From Galdieria sulphuraria (taxonomy: Eukaryota; Rhodophyta; Bangiophyceae; Galdieriales; Galdieriaceae), in contig NW_005178437.1 of the NCBI RefSeq assembly GCF_000341285.1, positions 62,001 through 126,000 on the forward strand: a stretch of DNA of 64,000 nt, in the 5' to 3' direction. Positions within the stretch are counted from its first letter, which is position 1; each line of letters begins with the position of its first letter. Position numbers and translations under genes: made by a program. This document shows, one piece after another, positions 1-64,000 of this stretch. The notes under the pieces are model-generated. The model had not been told where the DNA came from, ran no database searches, and saw only the letters and a list, made by a program, of their open reading frames with translations.

Positions 1-3000
1 CAACTTCAATCTCTTTCGCTTCCAATATGAACTTGGAAATCACCACTGGACTATCCAAAGAAACTTTTGCAGCTTCAGTAAGATAGGATTCCAAGTCTTC
101 GGGTTTATGAGCTACATTCATCGCAGCTCCGGATAATACATAACTGGGACGAACTAAACAAGGATATCCAACTTTCAGACAAAATGCTTTGGCATCTTCA
201 AGACTAGTAAGTTCCTTCCATTCTGGTTGGTCTACTTGAAGCCTATCTAACATTCTTGAAAATTTGTATCTGTTTTCAGCACCATCAATCATCTCTGGAG
301 TAGTTCCTAATATTCTGGCATGTTGTCTATGTAGCTGCATAGCAATATTATTTGGAATTTGTCCTCCCATAGAAACAATAACGCCTGTAGCTTTTTCCAA
401 CTCATAAATATCCAAAACTCGCTCTAAAGACAATTCTTCAAAATAGAGACGATCACATTCATCATAATCCGTAGATACCTACATTGAAAGAAAATGCTTC
501 AACTTTAGAACCAAAAAAAAGAATACATAAATTTACCGTTTCAGGGTTGTGATTCACCATGACAGAATAAATGTGTTGATTCCTAAGAGTACGAACAGCA
601 CTCACTGCACACCAATCAAACTCGACAGAAGAACCAATGCGATAAGCTCCCGAACCAAGAACCATGATGCCTTCTCTGTCAAATGCTACATCATTCTTTT
701 GCATTTCCTTGGAAAGATTATAACCTCTTCCATTTACATAGGTTGTATAAAGATAATTGGTCACAGCAGGAAATTCCGCTATTCAAAAAATATAAATACT
801 ATCAAAGGCAAATCATTCTAAATCTTACCAGCAACGGTATCAATTCTTTTCACCAAAGGTTTCACTTGTAGTTGCATACGGAGACTTCGTATCACCAATT
901 CGGTTTCTCCAATACATTTTGCAATGTGTTTATCACTCATACCCAAAGACTTGGCATACCACAAATCTAGTTCTTGTAAGGACTGACCGTTGGAAGCAAC
1001 CTTTTGCAAATGTTTTTCGAGTAAAATAATGCTTTCCAAATGATTAAGAAACCATCTATCTATATGCGTTAGTTGGTGAATCTTGTCGACAGTCATTCCA
1101 TTTGCTAATCCATTAGCTATGGCAAAAATTCTCTCATCAGTAGGATTCGACATTTCCTCAGTAGTATACGGAACAACTGAGCTGTCCAAACCAAAAACAT
1201 AATTTTCCTTTACACAACGAATAGCTTTTTGTATCGCTTCACAAAAGTTGCGTCCAATTGCCATTACTTCGCCAACAGACTTCATAGAAGAACCTAACAA
1301 CTTGCTAACTCTTGTAAACTTCTTCAAATCCCAGCGTGGCATTTTCACAACAATGTAATCCAAACTAGGTTCAAAACATGCCGTAGTACTTTGTGTAATA
1401 GAATTGCGAATCTGAGTAAGCGGTATTCCTAATGCTAATTTGGCAGCGACGAATGCCAAAGGATATCCAGTGGCTTTACTAGCCAATGCTGAGGATCGCG
1501 AGAGACGAGCATTCACTTCGATGATACAATATTGTCGACTATTGGGGTTTAAAGCAAACTGAATGTTGCATTCACCTACGACACCCAAATGTCGAATAGT
1601 TTTCATGGCTGAATCACGCAACATATGATATTCATAGTCATCCAAAGTCTGACTGGGAGCAACGACAATAGACTCTCCCGTGTGAATGCCTAATGGATCA
1701 AAATTCTCCATGTTACAAACCTAATGAATGAGTGTATAAAAGAAAACAAATCATATTTGATTAGTTATAAGAACTTGCAATAAAAAAATGTTCAACTACC
1801 GTGATACAGTGATCATAGGCATCACGAACTACTTCATACTCAATTTCTTTCCAACCCTTCATAGATTTCTCTATCAATACTTGGTCTGATGTTGAAAATG
1901 CCCTCGATGCCAAATTGGTCAATTCTTCAGCATCATTTGCAAAACCTGAACCAAGACCTCCTAATGCAAATGCTGCTCGCAAAATTACAGGGTAACTAAC
2001 AATCATCAAAACAAGTTCCAAATACTAATTATGAAGCATACCCAATTTCTTTAGCAGCTTTCAATGTAGCATCCAATGAAGAACATGCAATGGAATGAGC
2101 AAATGGCTCTCCTATTTCTGAAAGACGAAGGTTGAACCTCTCTCGATCTTCTGTATCCAGAATGGTTTCAATAGGAGTGCCTAAAACACTTACACCATAC
2201 TCTTCAAATATACCACTCTGATGCAGTTTGATACCACAATTGAGTGCTGTTTGTCCTCCAAACGTCACAAGAATACCATCCGGTCTTTCATTTCGAATCA
2301 CTTTGGCCACACTTTCGGGATTAATAGGAAGGAAATAAACCTTGTCTGCCATTCCTCTCGATGTTTGAACTGTTGCAATATTAGGATTGACTAAAACGGT
2401 CTTGATGCCTTCTTCTTTCAAAGCTTTCAAAGCTTGAGTACCAGAATAATCAAATTCTCCAGCTTGACCAATAGAAAGTCCACCACTACCCAATAACAAA
2501 ACTTTCCTTATATGACGACCATCTTCTTCTATTGACTTTGGAATCTTTGGTTTCTTGTAGTTCAAAAAGATATCCCATGCAGAAACATAATTGGAGGCTG
2601 ACTGTGTAGATTTGTTTGTTTGCACAATATCTAAAAATAAGTCAAACAAGAATTCCGTATCATGTGGTCCTGCACTTGCTTCCGGATGAAACTGAACGGA
2701 AAAAAATGGAAAACGATCGTTACATATGCCTTCGTTGGTTTGATCATTCAAGTTGACGTAAAGGGGTTGCCAATGGGGAATCTTTTTACTGCTCGTATCA
2801 ACTGCATATCCATGATTCTGCGAAGTTATATAACAATGTCCACTCGTTAATTCCAAACATGGCACATTGTGACCTCGATTTCCATATTTCATCTTAAACG
2901 TCTCAAAACCAGCAGCTAGACTCAATAGTTGATGACCCAAACATATTCCAAACATAGGAGTCACACGCGACGAATCTCTCTTTTCTGCTGCTTCCAAAAT

Positions 3001-3929
3001 ATTCTTGATGTGATGGATTGTGATTTCACACATACTAGGGTCACCAGGTCCATTGGATAGAAAGATACCGTCAATATTTTGAAGTGTTTCTGGAGAAGAA
3101 AAATCATAGTCCCAAGGAACCAAAGTTATTTGGGCCTGGCGATTTAAGAAACATCGAATCTGATTATATTTGATGCCACAATCTACCATAAGAATATGAC
3201 AAAGGGTGTTTCCTAAAGGAGGACGATATATGATGGGCTCCTTAATGGAAACTTGAGCAACAAGGTTTGTTTGATTAAGATCATAGAAAGAAAGTTCCGA
3301 ATCTACTACAATTTTCGCTAGCATCGTTCCCTGTACTCTCCATTAGAACAATATCATATTGAAAAGGATGGAAATTACTTTCTCTCTGATTATCTGCGTC
3401 AATTGTCGTGTATCTATATCATATATACCACTAACGTTGTTCCTCTTCAGCCATGAATCAAAGGAGCTTTCTGCTTTCCAATGTGAATGCTTCTCAGTGA
3501 AGGAAGAAACGACAACTCCAGCAGTGTGAATTTCATAACTTTCGAAATAAAGAGGAATTCCGTTGTGATCCACCTAATTATGTTATAAGCACATAATAAC
3601 CACACCATTAGAAAAGAATATCGAACCTCTTTCTCTGAGGGTACTCCATAGTTACCGATAAGTGGATAGGTAAAGCAGAGAATCTGGCCACGATAGGAAG
3701 GATCCGTCAGTGCTTCAGGATATCCGACCATTCCAGTCTGAAAGACTGCTTCTCCAGAAGAACTCCTTTTGGCACCAAACGAATATCCATGAAATACGGT
3801 GCCTAGAGAGCATCACACAGATAGTTCAGAAACTCCACAGACCCACGGAATGTGCTACTTGCCGTCTTCCAAAATAAGCTTGGCAGGAGTAGGCATCTCT
3901 GTCGATCCATTTTCCTTGTATCCGTTCAT
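1..3929 (-). CDS. Carbamoyl-phosphate synthase, fused glutaminase and synthetase (3' end outside window)
   Basis: Makes carbamoyl phosphate from glutamine, bicarbonate and ATP for pyrimidine and arginine synthesis. Exons read on the minus strand: 3863-3929, 3627-3802, 3379-3573, 2042-3330, 1800-1995, 829-1720, 537-778, 1-478; all phases agree. The N-terminal half is the small-subunit and class-I glutaminase domain, with the nucleophile in FGICLGHQ and the catalytic His/Glu in [11 protein letters not shown]. It runs without a break into the first ATP-grasp synthetase half ([20 protein letters not shown]) and the start of the second half at the window edge. This single-chain arrangement is that of animal and fungal CPSase II. 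The first ATG at 3929 follows an in-frame stop and leaves almost no leader, so a cytosolic protein is inferred. The first intron (3803-3862) is GC-AG. Whether aspartate transcarbamylase follows cannot be seen. Confidence 0.93.
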
Positions 3930-22190: not shown

Positions 22191-22198
22191 GTTGAGAA

Positions 22199-25100
22199 AT
22201 GATTCTGCTGAAGAAATGTTGCAGTGGCCAACTGTATAGAAAACGTATCTTTGACTCTACTTCTTTGTCGTTGGAAGTTAATTCAAAATATCTACAGAAG
22301 TTTGGGACCTATATACTTCAATGCTTTGTTCATTCGTCCACAGATTTTTCTGCTGATTCCTACCATTCTTTGCTTGTGGGTAAGCAGGAACTGGATGCTT
22401 TCTTTCGGCCAAAGCAAGTCACTCTAGTAGTTGGAGATGTTCCAATTGACAGAAAGTTGCACATGTTGTGGAAGAATTTGCAAGATGGTACAAAGTTATT
22501 TAACTTGGAAGCTGCTAGTGTTGGTACTACAGAAAGATATGGAAAGATGTTCACCAATGGCTTAAAGAGTGTTGAAGATCTCAGAGGACCCATCGATCTT
22601 GTCGTAATAGCAACGCATGTATCAGAGGTTCAGGGTGTTTTGCATAGTTTGGCAAAGAAAGGAACCAAAGCTTGTTTACTCTCATCACTTATAACTTGGG
22701 ACAAGTTGGGTACAAAAGAAACGCAGAATGTCTTTCGAGAAATTGCATCGGTTGCGTCACAACATCAAATAAGACTCATAGGTTCTGATAGCTTAGGTAT
22801 ATTGAACTGTCGTTTGGGACTGAATGTATCGTCGTCTTTATCTCGAGACTATCTTCCTGGCCAAGTTGCGTTGTTATCCCAAAGTGGTTCTTTGATTTGT
22901 TCATTGTTAGATTGGTCGGTAAAAGAACGTTTCGGTTTTTCAGGAGTGGCAGATGTTGGAACTATGTTGGATGTGGATTGGGCTGACCTGATTCACTACT
23001 TTGGCAATGATCGTCATACACACTCTATTTTGATTTATGCAGAAGGCATTGGAAATGTACGACGTTTTCTATCTGCTGCTCGAGAAGTAGCAGTAAGCAA
23101 ACCCATCATGCTGATAAAGCCTTACAAATTGCACATTTCTTCCAAAACAGTAAGCACTCGTCCGATATCAGGAAAGGGAACGATTCCCAAGGAACTAAAA
23201 GGCCCTCTTGATTTATTGACATTTGATGAAAATGCTGTCTTAGATGAAGTATTTCGAAGGTCTGGAGTGCTTCGAGTGGAAAGTGTCAATGATCTATTTT
23301 TAACAGCTCGAGTTTTGGCACATCAACCTCGTCCACTGGGTTCCAAATTGACCATTATTAGTAATGCTGGTGGACCAGGTTATTTGGCAGCAGACCAACT
23401 TATCGCTGGAGGAGGACAACTATCCTCATTATCGGCCAAAGTTTCTTCCAAGATTCAGAAAGTATTGCCGAGCCACTTGCCAACAGTCAATCCAGTAAGT
23501 TTCGTTTTTATTCATATTCTCCATTTCTTAAAGGCTTCAGATTGATCTATCAGGGAATGCCTCAGCAAATGACTACAAGGAAGTATTGGAGGCCTGTTTT
23601 GAGAATGCTGAAACCGATGGAGCGTTAGTGATTCTAACACCACAGACGATGACTCAAGGCACGGAAACTGCACAAGTGTTGGCGGATATGAGTAATCAAT
23701 GGAGAGAAAAACACAAACCACTATTGACAAGTTTTATGGGAGGAAAAGAATTGATGGAAGCGCAAGAGATATTACGCAATGCTCAAATTCCCAATTTTGC
23801 ATTTTCGGATGTAAGAAAGACCACCTTTTGTAACCCAATGATGACCGAATTCTTACTTGAAAAATGTTTCATAGACTGCAGCTTCTGTTTGGAATTATCT
23901 GTGGCGATATAATGAATACTTACAGAGTCTTTATCAAGTTCCTGATTCGGGTTTATCAGAAGTTGCTTATTGGAAGGAATCTCAAAGAACAGCGGAAGCC
24001 ATGTTACGTTCCATTCAGAAACAAGGAAGGTCTCTTATGACGGAAATAGAGAGCAAGAAATTGGTTGGTTAAAAATTTTCAGTCGTTTCAAAATCTTGCT
24101 GAATATTCTCTTTTTATAAATAGTTGCAAATCTATCAAATTCCCGTCGTCGATACTCGCGTAGCAAAGGAAGAAGAAGAAGCTGTGGAAATGGCCAAGGA
24201 ATTAGGATTCCCTGTTGTTTTGAAACTTCATTCAGAGACGATTATTCACAAGTCCGAAGTAGGAGGAGTGAAATTGAATCTGACTTCTTCGGAAGCAGTT
24301 AAATATGCGTTCCGCTCCATTCGTGAGAGCTGTGGTCGTCTTCGAGGAAGACAACATTTTCAGGGAGTTGTTATTTATAGGATGATTGATAAACCCAGGG
24401 ATACTCATGAAGTAATGTTGGGTTCTATGATTGACTCACAAGCTGGACCTGTGATTCAGTTTGGCACAGGTGGTAGCCTTGTTCATGTTTACGAAGACTT
24501 TGCAATAGCATTACCTCCTTTGAATACTCATTTAGCGCGTCAGATGATGTCGAGAACCAAAATTTATGGAGCGTTGGTAGCTGCACGTAAGACTTTGGGA
24601 ATGGATACCAGGAAGATCGAAGAAATTGTCGAACGTTTTTCAAGAATGGTCACGGAACAAGCTGCGTTTGTCAAGGCTTGTGAGATCAATCCGATTATAG
24701 TTGGTCCGAAAACTATCTTAGTAGCTGATGCTCGTGTCTGGCTTCATGAAGTTAGCAAACATTCTCCTCAGTTAACTCCCAGCCCAGCTATTCGTCCTTA
24801 TCCTAGTGAGTATGTATTCTCTTGGCCCGGAGATTCCATGGGAACTCCGCCCTTCTTAGTGAGGCCCATTCGACCTGAAGATGTACATCGTTTAAAGCGT
24901 TTTATGGAACTGATTCTTAAACTGAAAAGGAACGAAAGCAGTATATCGGATTCTAAATTATTGATGACAGCTACGTTACCTGAAGATGTTCCTATGGAAT
25001 TGTTTGAAATGTTGTCCCATGACAATCGTTGGAAGGATGTTACATTGCAACGATTAAATGAGCGAGTGGTTTCCATTTGTCATGCAGATTATTCTACCAC

Positions 25101-25440
25101 TATAACATTAGTAGCTGAAACGATGGACTCAGAAAGTGGCGAAATGGAATTTCATGGTTTTGCATCCCTTTGTTTACGCAAAGGTACTAAAGAGGAAGGA
25201 GTCATCTCATTGATCATGAAAGAAAACAATACCCTTGCCAATGAATTATTTAGAAGATTGATAGTTATTGCGAAACAGGAGAGTTTGAGTAAGCTGACAT
25301 TTTGTTTCCATGAAAAGGAAGCTTCACTTGAAAAGCTGGGTCGCCAGATTGGTTTTCATTTTGAAAAACAAGGTTCTCAGTTATGTAGAGCTACAAAAAT
25401 ATTCGCGAATGAAACTAGGAAAGAGAATCTTTCAGCTTGA
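22199..25440 (+). CDS. Pat-type protein: NDP-forming acyl-CoA synthetase domains fused to a GNAT domain
   Basis: Exons 22199-23494, 23541-23810, 23875-24063 and 24124-25440 give 1023 residues. Order: possible mitochondrial leader; CoA-binding Rossmann domain (VTLVVGDVP); succinyl-CoA-ligase-like domain (VALLSQSGSLICSLLDW, ADVGTMLDVDWADLIHYFG); second flavodoxin-like part (NAGGPGYLAADQL); ATP-grasp (GFPVVLKLHSETIIHKSEVGGV); C-terminal GNAT-like part starting FLVRPIRPED. This is the layout of bacterial Pat/PatZ lysine acetyltransferases, which acetylate acetyl-CoA synthetase. The HTGAL-type catalytic His loop of true ADP-forming synthetases is missing before FRRSGVLRVES, as in bacterial Pat. 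The GNAT part also lacks a clear Q/R-x-x-G-x-G loop and may be degenerate. Probably of bacterial origin (inference). Confidence 0.82.
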
Positions 25441-26448: not shown

Positions 26449-29400
26449 TTATATCTTCCATTGAGAGAACAATAGCTCCAAAGGTTCCTTTTGTTTCTTG
26501 CTTTGTTCTTTTAACCATTCTTCGAGTAATACGAATACATCTTTGCGTTTCCAAACACAGATAGATTGCGAGTCTCCTGCATTTCTACAGAGAGGTGTCA
26601 AGAAGGAAGAATGTTGAGATGGAGAAATTGGTGCACNTAAATGTGATGACGATATTTGATCCAATAAGGTCGTCCATTCTTGATGTTTGTGGAACACAGA
26701 ATAATTGCCGAATAAATAAATTGCACATCGAGCGCGACTCGTAAGAACATTGATTCTTCTTTCATCTCTCAAGTGGCCCGTTAACAGAGAACTTGACACC
26801 AATGAGATAAGAATGATGTCCTTTTCTTTGCCTTGAAATTCGTCCGTCGTGAAGATGGATACTGGTTGATCATGCAGTGTTGTTGAATGTTGTTCATTTG
26901 AAGCAAAACTTTGAAAGTAAACTAGAAAGACATGTTTCAGTAATTTCTTCTGTTTCCTATAAGGAGTCAACACAGCAATACGATTCCAAGAAACATTCCA
27001 ATAATGCAAATAGTGCAAAAACTGGGCAATGGCTTTGGCTTCCATGGGATTTTCATAAGGGGAATCTGAGAGAGACGATTCGTTGATGGTTGGATTGGAA
27101 ACATCAAGAAATAAAACTCTACTACAAATGCCCTGTGGCATCCAGAAATGATTATCTTGATAAATATCATTCAATACATTTTGCTTGAATGTTACTCCAT
27201 CCGTATGATAAGTGGCTTCTGTTTTTTGATAACGAAATCGATACAAATCAGCAATGCAAGGAGCAGCTCGTCCTTGTTCTTCCAACTGAATAAAAGGAAA
27301 CTTCAAATGAATCAATCTGGAAAATAATGAAACCTGATGTGAAGATAGCTGTTCCAAAATGTCATTGTTTGCGGAGCGATACTGGACGATAGGAGCTAAC
27401 TGCAAATCATCGCCAATCAGAATCGTTCGTATTGGTTGATATCTGGCAAATAAAATAAACTGATTCCATTCCGTAACTAGAGCAGCTTCTTCTACTATAG
27501 CAGCCACTATTTTGGTATGTCCATCAGAAGGCCAGTGTTCTGCATATTTCATTAAAGATGCAAAGGTAGTTATTACCAACTGACAATGAGAAAGCAACTC
27601 TTTGAAATAAACAGAAAAACGTGGATGAAAACTTCGTAGTAGAGAATCACATTTTGTAAGCAAAATGCAATCTCTCAGTAAAGCTATTCGCTTCCAATTT
27701 CGACTCCTTTCCATTTCTTCTTTGCTGGAGTATTTCTGAATCGTTGCTTCTAACCAAGATAAACCTATCTGATCCAAGTATTTACTCAATAGATAGGGAC
27801 ATGTTTCATAGTCTTCAATGGCCTCACAAAGATTGGTCAACCAATTGTCCTCTTTAGAATGCTGATATTGTCCATATTCCTTGGCAAACTCTGACAGGTG
27901 TTTCCACAATTTGTCCCGGAACTCCTTCATCACATAATAATGACCTTCCAATGTAAGCTGTCTGATAACCTTGTCATTGGACTGCCTTCCCAATCTTAAG
28001 ATGGGCTGAAGGAGAGGATGTAATGTTGTGACAGAACGATGAGTACACAAGTCTATTCCTGGGTAGCAATGTTCTTTAGGATAACATTTCTGAAGAACCT
28101 TTTTTGCCAAATGATCAGCTGCTTCATTTGATTGAGCTACGATCATCAGAACAGAAGATGAAGCATTCTTATCTTCCTGCTGCCTGTCAACAAATCTATT
28201 TTGCAAGAAGAATCGAATGATGCAATTAGCAACTTCTGTTTTGCCAGTTCCAGGAGGTCCTCGAATAAGAACCAGTCGTTGCAACCAACTTGCACAAAGT
28301 GCTGCCTTTTGAGCCTCGTACAAATAGGCAAATGATGTTTCATGAGGTATATGAAACTTGTCGGAAACAACAAAAGAACAAGATGTATTTGTAAAAGTAT
28401 CACCTAATTTGCGTAGATAAACGAAAGAACGAAAATTTTCATCTACCTCAAGTTGAAAGCCAGGGATAATGGAAGCAAGACTAGAAAGAAGTCCTTGTGC
28501 ATCGGGTATAAACGGATACAGACATATTTCTTGATGAGTTTCATCATTTACGAGCATATCTAATGTTTTGCTTTCCGATAACGAAAAAGAATCCTGCGTC
28601 AGAATACTGGAGAAAAACTCGGGTATTACTTCTTGGTGTTGGTCATCATCCAAATTGGCAATCGACAAAGTGTACCAATCATAAAGCTCTTCCAAAACTT
28701 CTTGATGTATATCGTTTGGAGCTTCCAAACATATCAAATACATTGCCTTTTCAGTCTCTATCCAGTCCATCCGATCATTGGAGACAAATGTAACAGAAAA
28801 TTTCCGCAAAGAACTTTGGTTTCCTTGCTTGTCATTCTTCCATCTTGCAGAATAACAAAGGCCAATCCACTGAATATCATTCCAATGCAAAGAGTCGCTA
28901 CTATCCAAAAAGTTATCCATTGCATTAGACAGGAATAAGGCACCCAATCTTCCAAAAGAGTTGGTTCTGGCAAGTTCATCATCACTTCCGAGGAAACGCA
29001 CTTGGCCATTATAGGAAAACAGCAAATGTCCTTTCTCTATCTGACGGCTTAAAAGTCTGTTTTGCTCCAAATGAGTAACAGAAAAGATAAAACTTCGTTC
29101 TGTTCGTATCCTCTCCTTATGTACGTTCAATGCTGAGTACATTTTGTATGCCAACTCTGCTTTGCAAATAGTGAACAAAGAACAGAGATAACTTATCGTA
29201 GAAGGATAGCAGCACGAAGGAGGAATCATACAAAGATTGTTACCCATTAGAGCATTCAAGTATGAAATATCTGGAAAACAACAGTCAGTGCCAGTAAGTT
29301 TCTTCCAAAATGATAAATGTGTTAATATCAATTGACGTAAAGAAACTTCGGATGGACACGGTGGCCCTTTTCTGCGCTTTCTCATAAGCTCCAAAATTCT

Positions 29401-30492
29401 AAGCAAAACAAGGAAACATAATTTCCAACATCTACCTAAAGATATGCTATACTTTTTACATTGGAACATCAGAAACTCTTTCAATTTTTGCAAACAATGC
29501 TTCCAAGGATCTATCGAGTCACTGCATTCTGAATCCGAGAAGCAAATGATAAAAATGGCTAAATACAATCCCATGGCAGAGTTTTGCAAAGAAAAATAAA
29601 ACCAAAGCAAATAAGTGCTCATATTCTCCAATTCCTCTTCGTTTTCCAGAAGATTTTCCGGAGAGGCCACAGTTACTACGCCAACCAAGTCAATGAAATG
29701 AGATAATGTCAACTTGATAAAGGAATATTGATGATTCTTTGTAGCATTGGCGATGGGTATTCTATAAGTCTCCAGAAATTTATTCCATTCTTTTCGATTC
29801 GGTTCTGTTGATAGGAAAATTCTCAAGTCACTCAGTGCCACCCTTTGTAAAACTGGAGCAATAATAGAATATATGAAATCGATATTTTGATAGCACATCA
29901 TGCTTCGCAATAAATTGATGAATAAGGTCAATTTCCAAGAAGCCGGTTTTTCCAAAGCTTGTAGATGAGATGCAATTCTTTCAACAAGTTCCTTCACAAT
30001 ATGGAAGGCATTATTGGGACTATAATGATCTTTCATGACGCAAATTTGGAAAGATTCTTTGTTGAACTCGATTTTATGAAGCAATACGAAGCAAGCTGGA
30101 AATAGATACACTTCTTCCAAGCACAACGAAGAAGTGTGGTTGTTTAGTTGAGACAGCAGAGGTGCAAACCAGTTTTCCCAAGCAGCTGTTTGGTTCAACC
30201 ATTTACCAACTGACTGAATGTCTTTGTTCTCTTTGATCAGATAGTTTTTAAAAATATCTTCCAACTTTTCGTTTGTTTCCTTTGAAATTCGAGACACTAC
30301 GTCACTCCAAACATCCTCAAGTCCTATTGTCAATAAAAATTTGCAACTTGGTTTCAACTAACTTACCTCATGACTGATAAGATAATAAAGTACACTACAT
30401 ACAACAAAAGTTAGTTCTTTGTCTTGAAGGTGGATTTCAGCAGTCTTTACTGTGTGCCAATATTTATGAGCAAATGTATAAAAATTCTTCAT
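26449..30492 (-). CDS. Aquarius-like superfamily 1 RNA helicase
   Basis: Exons 30367-30492 and 26449-30315 give 1330 residues. The C-terminal half carries the SF1 helicase core: LIRGPPGTGKTEVANCII (Walker A), a VEEAA motif II in the Aquarius style (EEAA instead of DEAA), LIGDDLQLAPIVQ (III), LEEQGRAAPCIADLYRFRY (IV), TTDEFQGKEKDIILISLV (V) and RRINVLTSRARCAIYLFG (VI). The QGRA-LYRFRY block and GHLRDERR closely follow Aquarius/Cwf11, the intron-binding helicase of the spliceosome. The N-terminal 600 residues are helical and very divergent. Aquarius is usually about 1480 residues. The base at 26637 is an N and makes one codon unreadable; the frame is kept. Confidence 0.75.
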
Positions 30493-36054: not shown

Positions 36055-36579
36055 TTATATAAACCCTGACCCTGTCATAGGATTATGAGAGTGTTGAATA
36101 GCTGCCATAATCATAGATACAGTCAACAGTGTAATTATCCAAAATCTCCAATCCTTCGCCAACAGAGACAACCTGGGAACATTGAGCGGCGGCTTCATCG
36201 GAAACTTGGCACGTTGTCCTTTCAATGTTCCCCAAAGAGTATGTGGCTTGGACTTTTTACTTTCTATTTTTCCAGTAGCCACATATTTCACCCATTCAAA
36301 GTCCCAATCCACACTGGTTGAAGGGATTTCGTGATATGAGCGTTGAGATACAAACGACTCTCCAGAGTGGTGGGGCGGTATGTTTTCAGAATGACTAGAC
36401 TCATTTGGGTCTCGTTCACTGTCTCGTTGACAAGCACATACAGCCAGACTGTATTTCCTGGTTCTCACTGTAAACCAAAATGGATGAGGAATGGCCACAA
36501 ACAACATCATCAAAAAATGAACAATGAATGACAAATGGTCCCAAATGAGAATTTGTAGGCGGGCTATTCCAACTTTCAT
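36055..36579 (-). CDS. Small membrane protein of unknown function
   Basis: Single open frame of 174 residues. An N-terminal hydrophobic stretch (about 8-36) may be a signal or transit segment; a second clear membrane helix ([15 protein letters not shown]) lies near the C-terminus. Between them is a hydrophilic, Ser/His-rich loop and a tryptophan-rich part ([15 protein letters not shown]). I do not recognise a family. Its start codon is 43 bp from that of RAD51 on the other strand. Introns cannot be excluded in the first third, where the sequence is least protein-like. Confidence 0.5.
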
Positions 36580-36622
36580 TCAAATTTGTATTTGGTCCAG
36601 CATCTCTCACAACCAAGCTGCA

Positions 36623-37692
36623 ATGAGCAAGTCCTTACTACAAGAGCCTATCAAGTCGGAGGAAGATTCTGAAGAGTTCTTAGGACCCTTGGCAATACAA
36701 AAGTTGGAACAAGTTGGAATCTCTTCAACTGATATCAAAAAGCTACAAGATGCTGGATATCATACCATAGAATCTGTTGCTTATACGACGAAAAAGACAT
36801 TGCTAGACGTCAAGGGGATAAGTGAAGCCAAAGCAGAAAAGATTATCAACGAGTGTGCCAAATTAGTAAATATGGGTTTCACTACTGCCTATGAATATCA
36901 CAAGACTAGACAAGAAATTATTTCATTGACCACCGGAAGTCAGGAATTGGATAACCTGTTGGCTGGAGGAATAGAAACTGGTTCTATCACTGAACTGTTT
37001 GGAGAGTTTCGTACCGGAAAAACACAATTATGTCATACTCTTTGTGTTACTTGTCAGTTACCTATCGAAAATGGAGGTGGAGAAGGCAAAGCGTTGTACA
37101 TAGATTCGGAAGGTACATTTAGACCTGAAAGGATTGTGGCCATTTCGGAACGATATGGTTTGAATAGTGAAGATGTTTTGAACAACATTGCTGTTGCACG
37201 TGCATATAATTCCGATCATCAACTTCAGTTGTTAACTCAAGCATGTGCATTGATGGCAGAAAGCAGGTAGGGAATGAAACTTGTTTTCTGTTTTGAATAT
37301 TGCTTATATTATTTAGATATGCTCTTATTATAGTGGATTCTGCTACTGCTTTATATCGTACCGATTATTCTGGAAGAGGAGAACTTGCAGCCAGACAACA
37401 ACATATGGCAAGGTTCTTACGAGCATTACAAAAACTTGCAGACGAATTTGGTGTTGCTGTAGTTATTACTAATCAAGTAGTTGCACAAGTGGATGGTGGT
37501 GCTATGTTTGCTGTTGATCCTAAAAAGCCAATTGGAGGAAATATTATTGCACATGCATCTCAAACCAGATTGTATTTGAGAAAAGGAAGAGCAGAGAATC
37601 GTATATGCAAGATATATGATTCACCTTGTTTACCTGAAGCAGAAGCCACGTTCTCCATAATGGCAGATGGTATTCGAGATGCTTCTGATTAG
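36623..37692 (+). CDS. RAD51: RAD51 recombinase
   Basis: Exons 36623-37266 and 37317-37692 give 339 residues, exactly the human length. An N-terminal helix-hairpin-helix domain ([19 protein letters not shown]) precedes the RecA core with Walker [10 protein letters not shown] at 127-135 (human position 127), [15 protein letters not shown], Walker [13 protein letters not shown], and the L2 region [14 protein letters not shown]. It ends with [19 protein letters not shown]. Forms nucleoprotein filaments for strand exchange in homologous recombination. The GEFRTGKTQ and FGEF context and tail favour RAD51 over DMC1. An ATG 99 nt upstream would extend into the neighbour gene and is not needed. Confidence 0.96.
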
Positions 37693-44789: not shown

Positions 44790-46533
44790 TCAGTTAGATA
44801 TATGAGTTATTATACTATCCAATAGAAAACTACAAAATGCTTCAATGACTGGAACACAAAAACTATTTCCCAATAATTTCCAACGGGTACGAAAACTTGA
44901 AGAACATTCCATCACACATTCCGTATAACGATCGGGAAACCTAAAAGTCCTTATTGAATGAATGGGATGAGATTATCATAACTTACCCTAGTATTCTTTC
45001 TGCTTCAATGATATTCAATCCTCTCTTTTCTTGGTCATTATACCAAACAGTATTGAAACGATTATCAAAAGCTCGAGGTGCATAATTATTGGTAGTTATA
45101 GTATAAGCTTTAGGATATTGTGCTCTAGCATGATCCATTAAAATATCTTGTAAATAACAATTTGGTTTTTCTTCTAGTGTCCATATTCTCTTGGCATTAG
45201 GAATATTAGTCCAATAATAACGATATCGAATACCAGCTGAGAATCTTGACGCATCTACTAAGATAGGCTCCACTCCTAAAGCATCCGTAATGATTTGTCT
45301 ATCTTGAGCATTCATGGAAGCCACATTTTCTAATAAAAAGTATCGAGGCTTCAATTCTTCTAATAGACGAACATATTCAAAGAATAAGGAACTGGGACCT
45401 GATTGAATACCTCGTTGACGACCCAATCGGGATAAACTTTGACATGGACTTCCTCCAATCATAAAGTCTACACCTTCAGGAATATCTCTTTTGCTTACTT
45501 GTCGAATATCACCCAACGAAATGATATCTGGAAAACGAGTATGAGCCACTCGTATAGCTTTTGAATCAATTTCGGAAGCATAATAACGAACATGAACTAT
45601 TCCTAGTCTTTGCAAAGCCAAACGAGCTGCAGCTATTCCATCAAAAGCACTAAATACGATCATTTGAGGAGTAAATTCCGTTGTGTTTCGATCTTTCACT
45701 AATTGCGATAGTTGAGAAAAGATGAGCTTCAAGGAATGATGCTCATGATTATGGTTATGATTCGATTCCTTTTTTAGGTTTCCATCAGAGCAATGATACA
45801 ATAATGAAAAAGAATCGTTGAACCAATTCCAACTGGATATTTGATATTGAATATTGACTGAAGGAGTTTGAATGATATCTAAGGAATCATGTTTCTTATT
45901 GAAGGACGATAATAATAATAAGGGAGGAATATCTCGATGAGTTTTTGTTATAGATTGATTTTGTTGTTCACATAAAGCACATAACCAAATATCTTTCAAC
46001 TTGTTCTGATTCAAAGGTGGACAGACACAAGCAAAATGTAAAGTTATTGGACACTTTTCACAACATATCAAAGTATCTCCTAACCAATCATTTTCTTCAT
46101 CTGAACAACAACTTTCTGAAAAAGAATCAGAAGAAGCACTCTTATGGGTTGATCTTCTTTTGCTTTGTTTGTCTTTCCAATATTTTTGCCAACCACCTTC
46201 AGGCACTGCACAACTATCACAGTCATAATAAGAACCATCAGGTCCTATATTTCGAATACTACGAAAGGATATATTGGATCGATTACCAACCCTAGATTGG
46301 GACAATCCAATGTGTTGATGATGGGCAGTTGTATAAACTGAAGATGGATAAGAGTTGTCTTTTCTATTCGGTTTCCAAGTCTCATCATAGTCTTCATAGT
46401 CTTTATCGGAATCACTTGGTTGACTATCAGTTGATGTGCTTATATTGGAATCCTTATTCCATAAAGTGGATGGATAAACCAAGTCTTTAATAGATATGGG
46501 AGATATATTGGCTTTCTTTCCCAATTCACTCAT
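44790..46533 (-). CDS. DNMT3-like DNA cytosine-5 methyltransferase with PHD finger
   Basis: Exons 44987-46533 and 44790-44940 give 565 residues. C-terminal C5-methyltransferase: motif I VFSAFDGIAAARLALQRLG, catalytic motif IV IGGSPCQSLSRLGRQRG, motif VI LLENVASM, motif VIII RYRYYWTNIP, and motif X LLGNSFCVPVIEAFC, which lies in the small last exon. The ASEIDSKAI and DVxxV layout and short target domain point to the DNMT3 group. Upstream is a PHD-type zinc finger: YDCDSC, then CCEKCPITLHFACVCPPL, then WLCALC, interrupted by a long Ser/acidic loop. DNMT3 enzymes have a related ADD finger that reads histone H3. The start at 46533 lies 17 bp after the stop of the upstream gene; another at 46560 would overlap it. 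Confidence 0.88.
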
Positions 46534-46549
46534 TCCAAAACAATATATT

Positions 46550-49296
46550 TTACATTCCATTCACTATGCATTCCATACCATCCTTACCATTTCTTCGACT
46601 ATATATAATCCACTGATTACAAACAAACTCTCGTTGCCAAGATTCTACAGAAGATGCAGGTTGTATAACAACTCTTTTCAAAAACCAAGAAGGAAATAAT
46701 CCACTTCCTTGATGACCAACTCTTATTTTGTTGGGTATTTGTAAACTATCTGGAACAGAAATCACAAAAGTGTCTTGTCCTCGACGACAAAAATGCGAAC
46801 CATCAGAATTAGAAAACAACAATCGTTCGGTGTGATTTCCATTTTCATCAAATAGTTGAATCCATACAGAAGCATCCGTTCCTGCTCCCCAACAGTCACC
46901 AGTTTGGAAAGTAATCATCCAAGGTTTGGTACATAAATTCGTCGTTCCAGTTTCATTCTGAACAGATACTAGAGAAGAGACTCCTGTAGAATGCCAAATA
47001 GTATTGAGAGATTGATTGGCCAATCTCCATAAAGACAACGGAGTTCTTCTCATCACAAGTTGTGCTGCTTCTCTCCAATCTAAATTTTCCAATTGTCGAA
47101 ATAATCGTATGGAATTATTGCTCAAAGTGTGTCTTGAGGAGTCATGGTAAGTATGAAAAGGAGAAACCAATCTTTTCTTCCAATAATCGATATCCGGTTG
47201 AATCACAAAATAATTTCCACTCCTAGTCCAAGTATAAAAACTTTCATCCTATCAACCCATTTTCAGTTTTGATCAACAACCAAATAGTGATACAAGTACT
47301 TGTAAAGTGGCTTTGAAAGTTAACCACAATCTAAGCCAACCATTGGAATGAGTATTATCCGAATGTACTATTCCATTCTTATCAATAGGAATCCAATACT
47401 CTTTAGGTTGAATATCGCCATAATGATCGATACAAATATAAGCACGACCTAATAATGCTTCTTTAGCAAAAGGGTCTTGATCCATCACAGTCAAAGTCAA
47501 ATATTCTTCTTGAATATGACAAACTGGAAATTCTGTAAATGCATTCCATACGGGACATATTTCATTTCTTAGACTAGTAAATGATGCCTTATGAGAACCC
47601 CATTCCAATAAACAACGAACATCATTTATGAAACAATCAGGATTGTCCATATGATGCAATTGATAAGCTTCCAATAGATGAATTTGTATCCAACCTTGTG
47701 GAATAGAAGATTCTTCAAAGTCTATATGATTAGATAGGTTGTTTTCTATTTTAGGAGTTGTTTCCAATGCAGTGGGATCCCAAAGCTTTTCATAAGAATA
47801 CTTTACATGAACGGAAGCTATCGAATGAGGTTGAAAAGAAGAAGAAGAAGAATGAGACCATCTAGAAGCTATCAAAGGCAACCAAATATCCATATTCTTA
47901 TCTACAGCATCTTTACATACTTCCAATGGTAACCAACCAGAACCGATCAAGATATCTTGTCCTAAGGAATTCACCATCTACAAACTCTCTTTCAATCATC
48001 ATGATTATCATCCATAGTCAATATTGATTACCTGAAATAGTCCTTGTGGAGTATGATACAGTCGAATATTGATCCATTGCTTACATTGATTGGTTATCAG
48101 AAATTCAAACTTTTCTTCAAATATGGGTTCATTGGTTCGATAACTCTTATGTGTAGTCATCACTTGACGTCCTAATTGAATAGTTATCGATGGATTCCAT
48201 TCCGAATAGTTTGCAAATAGATCTTCCGATATCGATATTTGGGCACTTAAAATGCGTATAGTTAATACGCCATCAGTACCTGGTGGATAACTAGCATTGT
48301 CTTTCAATGTATAAAAGAAACTCAGTAGAGATGAAGAATTGCCAGGATGACTTGTAAGACTTTGGAAGGATCGACTTGATGTTGGTTGAATAGGTACACT
48401 TATCTTATTAGGAAATAACATCTTTTCAAATGCTTTGACTGTTAAAAGATGATAAAGCCAAGAACGAAATGCTGGAATGTCCATCAAATCTATACCACTT
48501 GCCAAAGGTACAATCTCCAAATAAACTTTAGGCTGTTGTACAAAGGAAAACTTTAAACTTTCAATACCCCACGAACAATCATTTAAGCCCAACTCCTAAT
48601 ATAAGCTCCACTGTTCAGTTCCTATTTCTGATGAGAATAGATGGAAAGACTTACCAAACGTAATTTGGAGTGAATATTTATTTTTCGAACACTCAAAAGA
48701 GGAGGCTTTATACCCAACAGAGTAGCTGTGACCCGAACTTCACTACTACGAGCCATCCAATCCATATCTGCGTCCAATACAATAGTGTCTGCAGAAAAAG
48801 TTCTAAAACACTTGAGGTTATGAAGTTCAGGTGCGTGTCTTCCAAGTGTTAAATGAGTAACCATTACATCTTTGAGGAATTGAGGTTGATGCTTCTTTGC
48901 CAATTGTTGTAATTCCTTCATCAACAAGTCTGACCAGGTAGTCTCCAACTTTTCCCATAGTTTACCGATAATTCTATTGAGCCATAAAGCAGATTCCATA
49001 TTTTCACATAAAGGATACTGTAAAGAGTTGAATGGACCTTTTCTTTCTGATAAAACATTCTTCTTTCTTTTGTTCCACTTGGATAGTAAAAAGAACAGCA
49101 CACTATGGAAGAAAGATTCACAAGTGAGAATGGACATCATCATAAAGAGGCCGTTGAATATTATACTTACCAAGAGATAGCCAAAGTAAATATTCCCGAA
49201 AAGAAACCCTTTTCTTTCAATAAGCATATCAAATACCAACACCAACGTTTTACTTACCAACCAAAATGAAGATCGCCATACCACATCTTTCTCCAT
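46550..49296 (-). CDS. Extended-synaptotagmin-like membrane-contact protein: TM, SMP, C2 domains and C-terminal PLAT
   Basis: Six exons: 49258-49296, 49171-49208, 48655-49102, 48032-48595, 47300-47977 and 46550-47248, giving 821 residues with every phase matching. Order: short N-terminus and hydrophobic hairpin (FWLGFFSGIFTLAISCVLFF); SMP lipid-transfer domain (ALWLNRIIGKLWEKLETTW, FRTFSADTIVLDADMDW, ATLLGIKPPLLSVRKI); two C2-like domains (GVLTIRILSAQIS, then GWIQIHLLEAYQL with LTLTVMDQDPF); and a PLAT/LH2 beta-sandwich (ITFQTGDCWGAGTDASVWIQ, VGHQGSGLFPSWFLKRVVI). SMP-C2 proteins tether the ER to the plasma membrane and move lipids. The C2 part could end at a stop at 47273, but a 51-nt GT-AG intron (47249-47299) joins it to the PLAT exon in frame. 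Confidence 0.8.
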
Positions 49297-60795: not shown

Positions 60796-60856
60796 GACAA
60801 GTAAGAAATGGAAAAGTCGATTCCTTATTTGAATTGCAAAGAGAAAAGTCAAACAA

Positions 60857-62613
60857 ATGACTACGCTCTGTTATTCTTCTAACCATACTCAAACATTGTT
60901 AGTCAAGGTCATTTCTTTGAATGGAGAACATAACAAGATAACGGTTACCATCACTACTTGTTATGAAACCCAAAATGTAGCCAACAAAATATTTCGTTTG
61001 AAACTTTTCGACGAAAAAGACCCCTTTTTATTTTACGAATGTTATTGGGATGAAGATAGTTTTCTCGTCTTCAAACACCAACAAAACCTGTTGGTGGATT
61101 TTCAAGGTTTTGGGAGCAAATTTCACGAGTTGTTGTCCAACTGTCGAGAGGATAAGGAAAGGTTTCAAGCCACTTTATCCATGAAAGACAAAGAATTGGC
61201 AACTTTGATAATTGAAGAAAACACTCGATTCCGGACACTGACTTATCTATCTGTTGATTTAAATGTTGCGAGCCACGAGACGATACATAAGTAAGAGAGA
61301 GAGAGATACACGTTCTTATCAACATATTCAAAGTGTAACAACTTGTAGTCATTTTAAATTATCGCTGAATAGACTATACGGAATGATAGAGAATATGCAG
61401 TCGCAAGTTGCTCATTTGGAAACTCAGTTGGGACAAGAGAAGAGTAAAAATGAGCAGCTTTCCAATCAGTTGCATCAACTTGAATCAGATACTGGTAAGT
61501 TTAATGGATAAAAATTCATTTGAAAGCCAAATTCTCATTTGTTTGTTGTCTACAAAAGAACGTCAATTGGAAGATTGGAAAAGAGAAAAGGAACGACAGT
61601 TGAACCAAATTAGAGAAGAGAAGAAAGCTGAAAGAGAGAAATTATGGGAAGATTTGGAAGCACAGAAAAGAGAAGATATAAAAGTGTATCAAGATGAAGT
61701 CCTTGTTTGGAAACAAAAAGCTGAACAATGGAATACCGAAGTAACTCATTTACGAGAGTTGTTGGAACAAACTCAAAAAGAACTGAAAGGAATGCGTTCC
61801 AAAAGAGATGAACTAGAGTCACAATTTGATCAAGCTAAAGCTGACTTGAAAACTATGAAACAAGAGAAAGAACATTACTTATTAGATTTGGAACAAAAGA
61901 CTAGCCGTTTGGAAGAGTTGGAAAGACGGAATCGGGAATTGTCTACTCAAATAGAAGAATGGCAAACCCAATCAGAGTTTCAGACTCGTGAATGGGAAAA
62001 GGTAATGAAATATCAAAGGACAGAACAGAATACTAAAGAAGCTTTCAAGGATAAAGAAGAAAAAGAAAATTTGAAGACCCAGTTGGAATTGTATCGGATG
62101 AGTCGTAGTCGTTTGGAAGAAAAACTCAAAAGTTCTATTGGAGAAATCAACAAAGGCAACAGTATCATTGAAAAACTTCAAGAAGAGTTGAAGAACGCGA
62201 GACAAAAGGCAAAAATGAAGACAACCATTGCCAATCAACAAGAACAACTATTACAAGAGAAACAACATAAAATAGAACAACTCATACAAGAGATGCAAGT
62301 TTTGAATCAAAAAGTCTCAAGCAAAGAACGCGAGTTGGAGCATTTAAATCAATCTTTCCAGACTTGTAATGCGAAATTGGAGGAAAACCAAAAAGTATTG
62401 GAAAGTAACCAGCAATTGATCAATTGGCTTAATAAGGAATTGAATGAACTGCAGTTGTCTAGTCAGATTTTTTCGAAGCCTTTGAAGTCTTCATTTGCGA
62501 CCTTTCCTTCAGCAGCAGCCTACAATAAGAAAGATCGTTCTGCTTCCAATCCTTTGGATAACAATCCTTCTGCTGCCACAAGTAGAAAAGAAACATTAGT
62601 GGATAAAGCATGA
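60857..62613 (+). CDS. SAS-6-like centriole cartwheel protein
   Basis: Exons 60857-61290, 61349-61494 and 61559-62613 give 544 residues. Residues 1-145 match the SAS-6 head domain: FRLKLFDEKDPFLFYECYW, HQQNLLVDFQGFGSKFHELL (SAS-6 pattern QQ-x-LLVDF-x-x-F-x-x-K-x-x-x-LL) and the loop EENTRFRTLTYLSVDL, where F125 fits the Phe that inserts into the neighbouring head (human SAS-6 F131 in ETNPFKHLTHL). About residues 160-500 form one long coiled coil, then a Ser/Ala-rich tail, as in SAS-6 (about 600 residues). SAS-6 builds the ninefold cartwheel of centrioles. XRCC4/XLF share the fold but not the LLVDF block. Red algae are regarded as lacking centrioles and flagella, so the role here is open. Confidence 0.8.
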
Positions 62614-64000
62614 AACTCATTTGACCCAAAATTGTTATGATGACTTTCTTGTATATTTGTGAATGAAATAAATAGATAAAAAATGGATTGAGGAACCCAA
62701 TACTTTCTTTTATGTTCCTTAAGTGGACAAGTGATTCTGTATTTGTGAACTTCAGTCGGTTCTTAAATGAAAGCAACTAAAATGGAAATAGCAACAACTG
62801 AAGTTGTCAAATACATTTTGAAAAGAGTTGCACAACTCTTCAGTTGCATTTAAATGGATAGAAACAAGATCATCCATGGTCCTCTTACCATTTCATTTCG
62901 AACATATTCTTTACTTGATGAGAAATGAATGTCCTTTAAAAAATGCTTCATTTTGGGAACCAATCTTTATATTGTTTATCTTGATGGAGATTAAGGTTCA
63001 ATGTTTGTAATCAACTTGGAAAAATAACAACTGGTTGCTCACTATTTCATTACAGTCAAAGCTTTGATCAAAATTCTTTGCTCTTATAGCCATTTCACTA
63101 TTCATTATTTCATTCTGAATATCCACAAGCTGTATGAAATAGTTGGCAATATACTTTTTACTTACAATCAACATAACTGTTATTGTAATAATAACTTCCT
63201 CTTTCAATCGTCAAGAAATAAACAAATGCAGATGGAACCCAAGAAAGTAACTCTCATTCTCTCTCACGCATATTCCATTGCATAAAGATAGTTTTCTATG
63301 TTCTCGAATTTCTCTTCTATGTGAATAATATCTTCCTCAAAAGGTCACAACATGGGCAAACTTGACAAGCAAATCGAATGTAGCTAAGATTTTGCCAAGG
63401 AGAAATGTTATTCTGAAGAACGTATTTCCAACGTTGGTCAGAAATAGTGTCCAAAATGGAACCAAGTTGACTACATTCTTTATATACAATTCCACACAAG
63501 TTGAAAACCTTGTCATTTTTTTGTTCTACTATTATCCAAAAAGAAAAGAAGTTACGACTGGGAATCCACTACTAAGGACATTGTTCCCATAACAACTACA
63601 CAATTTTTTGTATCCAACAAAACGATGTTGTAGAAATTCATTTAGATGATATCAGTGCTTCTCAGAAAATTTCTTATAGTTTCTCTATAGAAGAATAATC
63701 TGTTGCAGAAAGTGATCTTAGAGTTTTGATTTCAAGCGACTCAGTTCTCTATTATTTACTCTGTCTCTACCGCAGCATTTTCTGAATTTACTGAATAAAC
63801 ACACAAAGGATACATTGCCATGAGCTCAAGAATTGTAGCACAAATGTAATGTTCAAACAATACCGCTCTCGCAAGTTGGAAAATAAAAAAAATTCTCAAG
63901 ACTTTATTTCGATGAGGGAGATTAGAAAAAGAAGCCTTTTGTAAGCATTTTCCAGTAAGACCAGGTTCAGTGCTTCATCTCCTTTTCAAGAAACTCATGG
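62614..64000. other. Right-edge region without a supported gene
   Basis: Nearly 1.4 kb, by far the emptiest part of the window. On the minus strand 63317-63499 reads as a possible terminal exon: CGIVYKECSQLGSILDTISD, then WQNLSYIRFACQVCPCCDLL before a stop, with a cysteine cluster. On the plus strand a short open frame ends DVVEIHLDDISASQKISYSF near 63700. The antisense frame there (beginning MNFYNIVLLD) conflicts with it. No tRNA fold was seen. These may be ends of genes lying beyond the window. Confidence 0.35.

What the first reader, a model, noticed from the sequence alone, without database searches (positions are those of the whole stretch)
60857..62613. SAS-6-like gene in a lineage thought to have no centrioles
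Seen: head domain with QQNLLVDF, DEKDPFLFY and the NTRF loop, followed by about 340 residues of coiled coil. Known: SAS-6 forms the centriole cartwheel and its distribution follows that of centrioles and cilia; red algae have neither but possess polar rings at spindle poles. Inference: either an ancestral cartwheel protein was kept for another ring-like structure such as polar rings, or the family is broader than thought.
Basis: partly seen in the sequence, partly recalled or inferred. Interest (0 to 1): 0.82.

Follow-up and report, generated by a model that had tools for sequence, protein, structure and literature searches.

The report
Centriole-building gene in centriole-less red alga
A red alga, very probably Galdieria, carries an apparently intact full-length gene for SAS-6, the protein that builds the central wheel of centrioles, although red algae are described as having no centrioles or cilia, so the protein may have kept a non-centriole job that can be tested in the lab.

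Summary
Window 60857-62613 (+) is a three-exon gene for a 544-residue protein. Its head matches Pfam SAS-6_N (E 2e-24); no XRCC4, XLF or CCDC61 model or chain is listed. F125 aligns with the ring-forming Phe of solved SAS-6 heads. A ~345-residue helical coil follows; its end, not its first half, matches human SASS6 typed from recall, far beyond heptad-preserving shuffles. So it is SAS-6 proper, not the tail-less SAS6L.

The host is inferred, not proven, to be Galdieria (GC 37.2%, short introns, plastid-lumen cyclophilin). Red algae are diagnosed as lacking centrioles and basal bodies, with polar rings instead. SAS-6 outside centriole builders has printed precedents, Ostreococcus tauri and Encephalitozoon cuniculi, so this is a new member in an unexpected place, not a new family.

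Best guess: a retained oligomerising scaffold at a non-centriolar microtubule site, polar ring or base of the haploid "tadpole" tail, which holds microtubules and is reported for Galdieria but not three other cyanidiophycean genera. Function is untested. No genome was held, so partner genes and other red algae were not searched.

The parts
60857..62613 (+). SAS-6 gene, start codon to stop codon, 3 exons, 544 aa
   Evidence: Spliced translation open throughout; Pfam SAS-6_N E 4.5e-23; codon score within the range of 25 neighbouring ORFs
60857..61290 (+). Exon 1: head domain (residues 1-145)
   Evidence: SAS-6_N over residues 28-135, E 2e-24; the best 23 of 30 PDB rows are SAS-6-type chains
61079..61102 (+). 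QQNLLVDF, residues 75-82, in the stretch that by homology holds the helix-turn-helix of the Phe pocket
   Evidence: Coordinates; invariant columns Q76, L79, D81, F82, F85, K88, L92, L93, C96 in a 4-sequence alignment; pocket described in PMC3939493 (passages); the mapping onto this protein is inference
61229..61231 (+). Codon of F125, counterpart of the head-to-head interface Phe
   Evidence: Coordinates; aligned with Phe in 2y3v and 6zz8, and with D in 2y3w and E in 6z4a at the same place
61291..61348 (+). Intron 1, 58 nt, GT-AG
61349..61494 (+). Exon 2: end of head, start of coil
   Evidence: coding score 0.246 bits/codon in frame
61495..61558 (+). Intron 2, 64 nt, GT-AG
61559..62613 (+). 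Exon 3: coil and short tail
   Evidence: Predicted helices over residues 196-353 and 359-499, mean pLDDT 82.4; windowed heptad periodicity
62032..62457 (+). Conserved end of the coil (residues 352-493), including LINWLNKELNE at 62416-62448
   Evidence: Local score 267 against recalled human SASS6; heptad-preserving shuffles mean 97, maximum 143 of 1000; repeated with a slightly shorter human string: 263, maximum 138 of 1000, reversed human 111
60796..60856 (.). 61-nt gap to the first in-frame ATG (60795, minus strand) of the divergent NFU gene; probably a shared promoter
   Evidence: for the ATG; NFU domains; promoter function is inference

Best explanation
The gene is a conventional, full-length SAS-6, most simply kept from a ciliated ancestor of red algae by a Galdieria-like alga. 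Shown here: gene model, family, architecture, interface Phe by alignment. Inferred: the protein dimerises through its coil, and the dimers join head to head through F125, giving rings, arcs or stacks. Guessed: in the absence of centrioles these oligomers scaffold a non-centriolar microtubule-organising site, either the spindle-pole polar ring or the base of the microtubule-containing tail of haploid 'tadpole' cells; I lean to the tail.
For: Gene intact and coding. SAS-6_N E 2e-24, no rival family listed. Interface Phe and the residues of the pocket stretch conserved. Coil, with its end matching recalled human SASS6. Host traits: window GC 0.372, against 37.6% in G. partita and 54.6-65.7% in the other cyanidiophycean genera; 16,347 introns in G. 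partita against 44 in one Cyanidium strain (PMC13353863 passages); CYP38-type plastid cyclophilin. Red algae are diagnosed without centrioles and with polar rings. Galdieria haploids have a tail with actin and microtubules, not observed in the other three genera; Galdieria also has a myosin gene that those three lack. Precedent for a SAS-6 relative in a non-cartwheel microtubule structure: Toxoplasma SAS6L in linear arrays on conoid fibres.
Against: No localisation, expression or phenotype was seen. The host is inferred from composition and gene content. No other red-algal genome was searched, so whether the three other genera or other red algae have SAS-6 is unknown. Partner genes (CEP135, SAS-4/CPAP, STIL, PLK4) could not be looked for. 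The head model failed (pLDDT 38). The first part of the coil (residues 150-330) is not significantly like human SASS6 (99; 35 of 1000 shuffles reach it; reversed human gives 124). The human sequence is recalled. No second Galdieria strain was compared, so purifying selection is not shown. Spindle microtubules are said not to converge on polar rings.
Confidence: 0.5

Rival explanations
1. Cryptic centriole: Galdieria, or an unseen gamete stage, still builds a cartwheel or reduced basal body, and SAS-6 does its usual job.
For: The protein looks complete, including the interface Phe and the coil end. A sexual cycle and motile haploid cells were described for Galdieria only in 2022, as cited by PMC13353863, which itself allows for as-yet-unknown gametes.
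Against: Red algae are diagnosed as having no ciliated stage, centriole or basal body. The described tail holds actin and microtubules and cells migrate across surfaces; the main text of PMC13353863 does not contain 'centriole', 'cilia' or 'centrosome', and 'flagell' only in a reference title.
Confidence: 0.15
2. Polar-ring component: SAS-6 is a building block of the ring that sits at red-algal spindle poles, in every mitosis and life stage. (This is the other branch of my best guess, stated alone.)
For: Polar rings stand in the diagnosis of red algae in place of centrioles, and SAS-6 is a ring-forming protein.
Against: The same diagnosis says that chromosomal and interzonal microtubules do not converge on the polar rings. 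Polar rings in Galdieria itself were not checked. If general, the gene should occur across red algae; no report was found in 'SAS-6'+'Galdieria' (0 papers) or 'SAS-6'+'red algae'+'centriole' (3 papers; passages seen, none links the two; two of the three are held only in part). C. merolae was in the genome set of one ciliary survey, but its tables were not seen.
Confidence: 0.2
3. Relic: the gene is a vestige with little or no function, not yet lost.
For: Function is unshown, and red algae are described without the organelle.
Against: Intact 544 codons, GT-AG splice sites, gene-like codon usage, and head and coil-end motifs conserved.
Confidence: 0.08
4. Wrong host: the contig is from a ciliated alga or is a contaminant, so SAS-6 is expected.
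Against: Low GC, short introns and several touching or overlapping ORFs fit Galdieria. SAS-6 lies 61 nt from an NFU gene and has the codon usage of its neighbours, so it is not a separate insert. The GATase-CPSase fusion is unlike green plants (recalled).
Confidence: 0.07

Closest known systems
SAS-6 / SASS6 / Bld12p (centriole cartwheel protein; PDB 2y3v, 6z4a, 3q0x, 6zz8, 4ckm)
   Same: Head family (E 2e-24), interface Phe and pocket stretch, ~345-residue helical coil, conserved coil end.
   Different: Host lineage is described as having no centriole or cilium; the first part of the coil is not significantly like the human one; the tail after the last predicted helix is about 45 residues.
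SAS6L (SAS-6-like; Toxoplasma conoid, Trypanosoma basal plate)
   Same: Shares the head domain; precedent for work outside the cartwheel.
   Different: SAS6L lacks the coiled-coil tail; this protein has it. Head score alone does not separate them: Toxoplasma SAS6L (9y9z) has 26 bits against 44 for the best SAS-6, but two chains named SAS-6 (9zmk, 5al7) have only 23 and 20.
SAS-6 of Ostreococcus tauri and Encephalitozoon cuniculi
   Same: Reported in addition to the eukaryotes known to build centrioles or basal bodies.
   Different: Different lineages; sequences not compared here.
XRCC4 / XLF / PAXX / CCDC61
   Same: Same head-plus-coil superfamily (recalled).
   Different: None among the Pfam or PDB rows listed up to E 10 (HMMER's filters drop most Pfam matches above about 0.1).

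Membership tests
SAS-6 | SAS-6_N head domain | tested here: met
   PF16531 E 2e-24, 86.7 bits against cut-off 25
SAS-6 | Interface Phe at the tip of the beta6-beta7 hairpin | tested here: met
   F125 aligns with Phe in 2y3v and 6zz8, and with D in 2y3w and E in 6z4a; by alignment only
SAS-6 | Hydrophobic pocket / head homodimer | tested here: inconclusive
   Pocket-stretch residues conserved, but the head model is unusable, pLDDT 37.8
SAS-6 | ~300-residue coiled coil after the head | tested here: met
   (no proline); one whole-length periodicity test negative; dimerisation not tested
SAS-6 | Conserved end of the coil as in vertebrate SASS6 | tested here: met
   Score 267, shuffle maximum 143 of 1000; 263, maximum 138 of 1000, in a repeat. 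Human sequence recalled: its 117-residue head stretch equals 6z4a except F131/E; the coil part was not checked against any record. First part of coil not significant (35 of 1000 shuffles)
SAS-6 | Forms nine-fold cartwheels in centrioles | not testable with these tools
   Needs microscopy; the lineage is described as lacking centrioles
SAS6L | Head without a coiled-coil tail | tested here: not met
   Tail of about 345 mostly helical residues present
XRCC4 / XLF / PAXX / CCDC61 | Match to those families | tested here: not met
   None among 8 (full-length) and 4 (head) Pfam rows, nor among 30 PDB rows, at E up to 10
Red alga (Galdieria) | GC near 37.6%, about two short introns per gene, compact genome, plastid | tested here: inconclusive
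   GC 0.372, SAS-6 introns 58 and 64 nt, gaps of 50 nt or less (or overlap) before 12 of 36 ORFs of 200 aa or more, CYP38-type protein all fit published values. Introns per gene not measured; no species match possible

The most novel reading that the evidence does not exclude
The microtubule tail of Galdieria haploid 'tadpole' cells is organised by a remodelled, non-nine-fold basal-body remnant built on SAS-6, so red algae did not lose the flagellar apparatus completely but one lineage converted it into a crawling tail.
Probability: 0.17. Interest if true: 0.88.

Novelty: new member of a known kind. Interest (0 to 1): 0.68.

Why it matters
SAS-6 is widely treated as a marker of centrioles. An intact full-length copy in a lineage defined by lacking them makes two questions directly testable in a transformable alga: what SAS-6 can do without a centriole, and what red-algal spindle poles or Galdieria's microtubule tail are built from. 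It would also add a lineage to the short list of printed exceptions.

Tried and rejected
XRCC4, XLF, PAXX, CCDC61 and SAS6L were considered and rejected. Transfer from a prokaryote or virus was considered: no relative was confirmed in viral contigs or genome contigs; the short patterns matched 6, 85, 96 and 43 stretches, none confirmed by tblastn. A whole-genome search for SAS-6 failed because no genome is held, so partner genes were not sought. The AlphaFold2 head model is too poor to use, and no fold search was run. The PDB search with the coil found nothing up to E 0.1. A single-phase periodicity test of the coil was negative; a windowed one was positive. The first part of the coil does not match human SASS6 beyond shuffles. 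Five window ORFs without Pfam matches were read for centriolar candidates; none was recognised by eye. Rfam: 0 matches at gathering scores in the window. A crude intron survey found candidates in 4 of 13 ORFs and proves little. I first thought the ORF-poor right edge (62614-64000) unusual; one search shows five other stretches of 1 kb or more without an ORF of 200 aa, so that was dropped.

'SAS-6'+'Galdieria' gave 0 papers; 'Galdieria'+'centriole' gave 8, of which only PMC6492006 was opened, the other 7 seen in the listing only. Thirteen papers were opened, none read whole: passages of PMC4979663, PMC5756292, PMC6070874, PMC5880011, PMC3939493, PMC10952624, PMC6492006, PMC2837639, PMC3268115 and PMC12819142; passages and one section of PMC3697468; passages, section 7 (first of two parts) and section 17 of PMC13353863; PMC13062707 was searched for five terms with no occurrence. 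PMC6070874 has no 'red alga' and PMC10952624 no 'SAS'.

Full report
What is there. The plus-strand ORF at 60857 is interrupted by two GT-AG introns of 58 and 64 nt; splicing them gives an uninterrupted 544-residue protein ending at 62613. Each exon scores as coding in the predicted frame, and the 15 other exon-frame scores are negative. The CDS score of 0.293 bits per codon lies inside the range, 0.157-0.314, of the 25 window ORFs that trained the codon table. The gene starts 61 nt from the first in-frame ATG of a divergent NFU gene. Downstream, all six frames of 62614-64000 score negative.

What family. Pfam gives SAS-6_N (PF16531) at E 4.5e-23 for the protein and 2e-24 for residues 1-157; the other rows (7 and 3) are below their cut-offs, and none is XRCC4, XLF, PAXX or CCDC61. 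Against the PDB, 30 distinct sequences are listed up to E 10 for the head; the best 23 are SAS-6-type chains (E 2e-10 to 0.004, one of them Toxoplasma SAS6L at 7e-5), and the other 7 carry unrelated names, with E of 0.26 or more. In a four-sequence alignment 19 columns are invariant, nine of them between Q76 and C96. PMC3939493 (passages) describes how the Phe at the tip of the beta6-beta7 hairpin enters a pocket made by a helix-turn-helix and the base of the hairpin. F125 aligns with this Phe; at the same place 2y3w carries Asp and 6z4a Glu.

The tail. SAS6L proteins share the head but lack the tail, whereas SAS-6 proteins are generally about 600 aa with about 300 aa rich in predicted coiled coil (PMC3697468, section read). 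Here residues 150-495 have heptad-like periodicity (windowed power 0.663, shuffle mean 0.206, 0 of 500 shuffles reach it), although a whole-length single-phase test was negative (1272 of 2000). AlphaFold2 on exon 3 alone gives helices over residues 196-353 and 359-499 at mean pLDDT 82. The end of the coil (residues 352-493) aligns with human SASS6, typed from recall, with score 267; 1000 heptad-preserving shuffles averaged 97 and reached at most 143. A repeat gave 263 against a maximum of 138, and 111 against the reversed human coil. The first part of the coil does not pass the same test: 99, reached by 35 of 1000 shuffles, and 124 against reversed human. The human head stretch as recalled equals 6z4a over 117 residues except F131/E; the recalled coil letters were not checked against a record. 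Head, coil and coil end together point to canonical SAS-6; head score alone would not separate it from SAS6L, since two chains named SAS-6 score below 9y9z.

Which organism. No genome is held. Window GC is 0.372. PMC13353863 gives GC 37.6% and 16,347 introns for G. partita, against 54.6-65.7% and a few dozen introns for the other three genera. PMC5880011 (passages) notes the exceptionally low GC and two introns per gene of G. sulphuraria among red algae. Thirty of 35 other window ORFs of 200 aa or more match Pfam at E 0.001 or better, some below Pfam's own cut-off; they include a CYP38-type plastid cyclophilin, a GATase-CPSase fusion and a PHD plus C5-methylase protein. I put Galdieria at about 0.9; it is not a species match.

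Why it is surprising. The eukaryote classification of 2019 diagnoses red algae as without ciliated stages, centrioles, basal bodies or other 9+2 structures, with polar rings instead (PMC6492006, passage). PMC3939493 calls SAS-6 found in all eukaryotes with cilia at some stage. But SAS-6 was reported earlier in Encephalitozoon cuniculi and Ostreococcus tauri, beside the known centriole builders, so this is not unprecedented. I found no paper that reports it in red algae: 'SAS-6'+'Galdieria' 0 papers; 'SAS-6'+'red algae'+'centriole' 3 papers, passages seen, none reporting it (two of them held only in part). The library lacks most subscription journals, and database annotation was not checked.

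How it may work. Shown: sequence, family, architecture. Inferred from solved SAS-6: coil dimerisation plus head-to-head contact through F125, giving curved oligomers. Guessed: the oligomers scaffold a microtubule-organising site that is not a centriole. Two places are open. Polar rings are in the diagnosis of red algae, though spindle microtubules are said not to converge on them and Galdieria was not checked. The haploid tail of Galdieria, with actin and microtubules, is not observed in the other three genera. Galdieria also has a myosin gene that those genera lack, which fits retention of cytoskeletal genes; whether those genera lack SAS-6 was not tested. Toxoplasma SAS6L, in linear arrays on conoid fibres (PMC12819142, passages), shows that this head can serve in a non-cartwheel microtubule structure.

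Verdict. An apparently intact, canonical SAS-6 in a very probable Galdieria. New member of a known kind, in a place where its usual organelle is said to be absent. Function open and directly testable.

Noticed in passing
44986-46560 (-): ORF with a C5 cytosine methylase domain and a weak PHD-finger match (below Pfam's cut-off), Dnmt3-like; PMC13353863 reports three Dnmt3 genes in Galdieria.
   Followed up: no
2032-3342 (-) and 821-1720 (-): Glutamine amidotransferase fused to the start of carbamoyl-phosphate synthase (CPSII/CAD-like); the gene runs towards the left window edge.
   Followed up: no
36521-37267 (+): RAD51, closer to RAD51 (E 1.6e-92) than to DMC1 (E 8.4e-59) chains.
   Followed up: yes
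22196-25437 (+): Two consecutive ORFs with Succ_CoA_lig and ATP-grasp_5 domains, resembling an ADP-forming acyl-CoA synthetase.
   Followed up: no
26637: A single ambiguous base (N) inside the large AAA helicase ORF 26452-30357.
   Followed up: no
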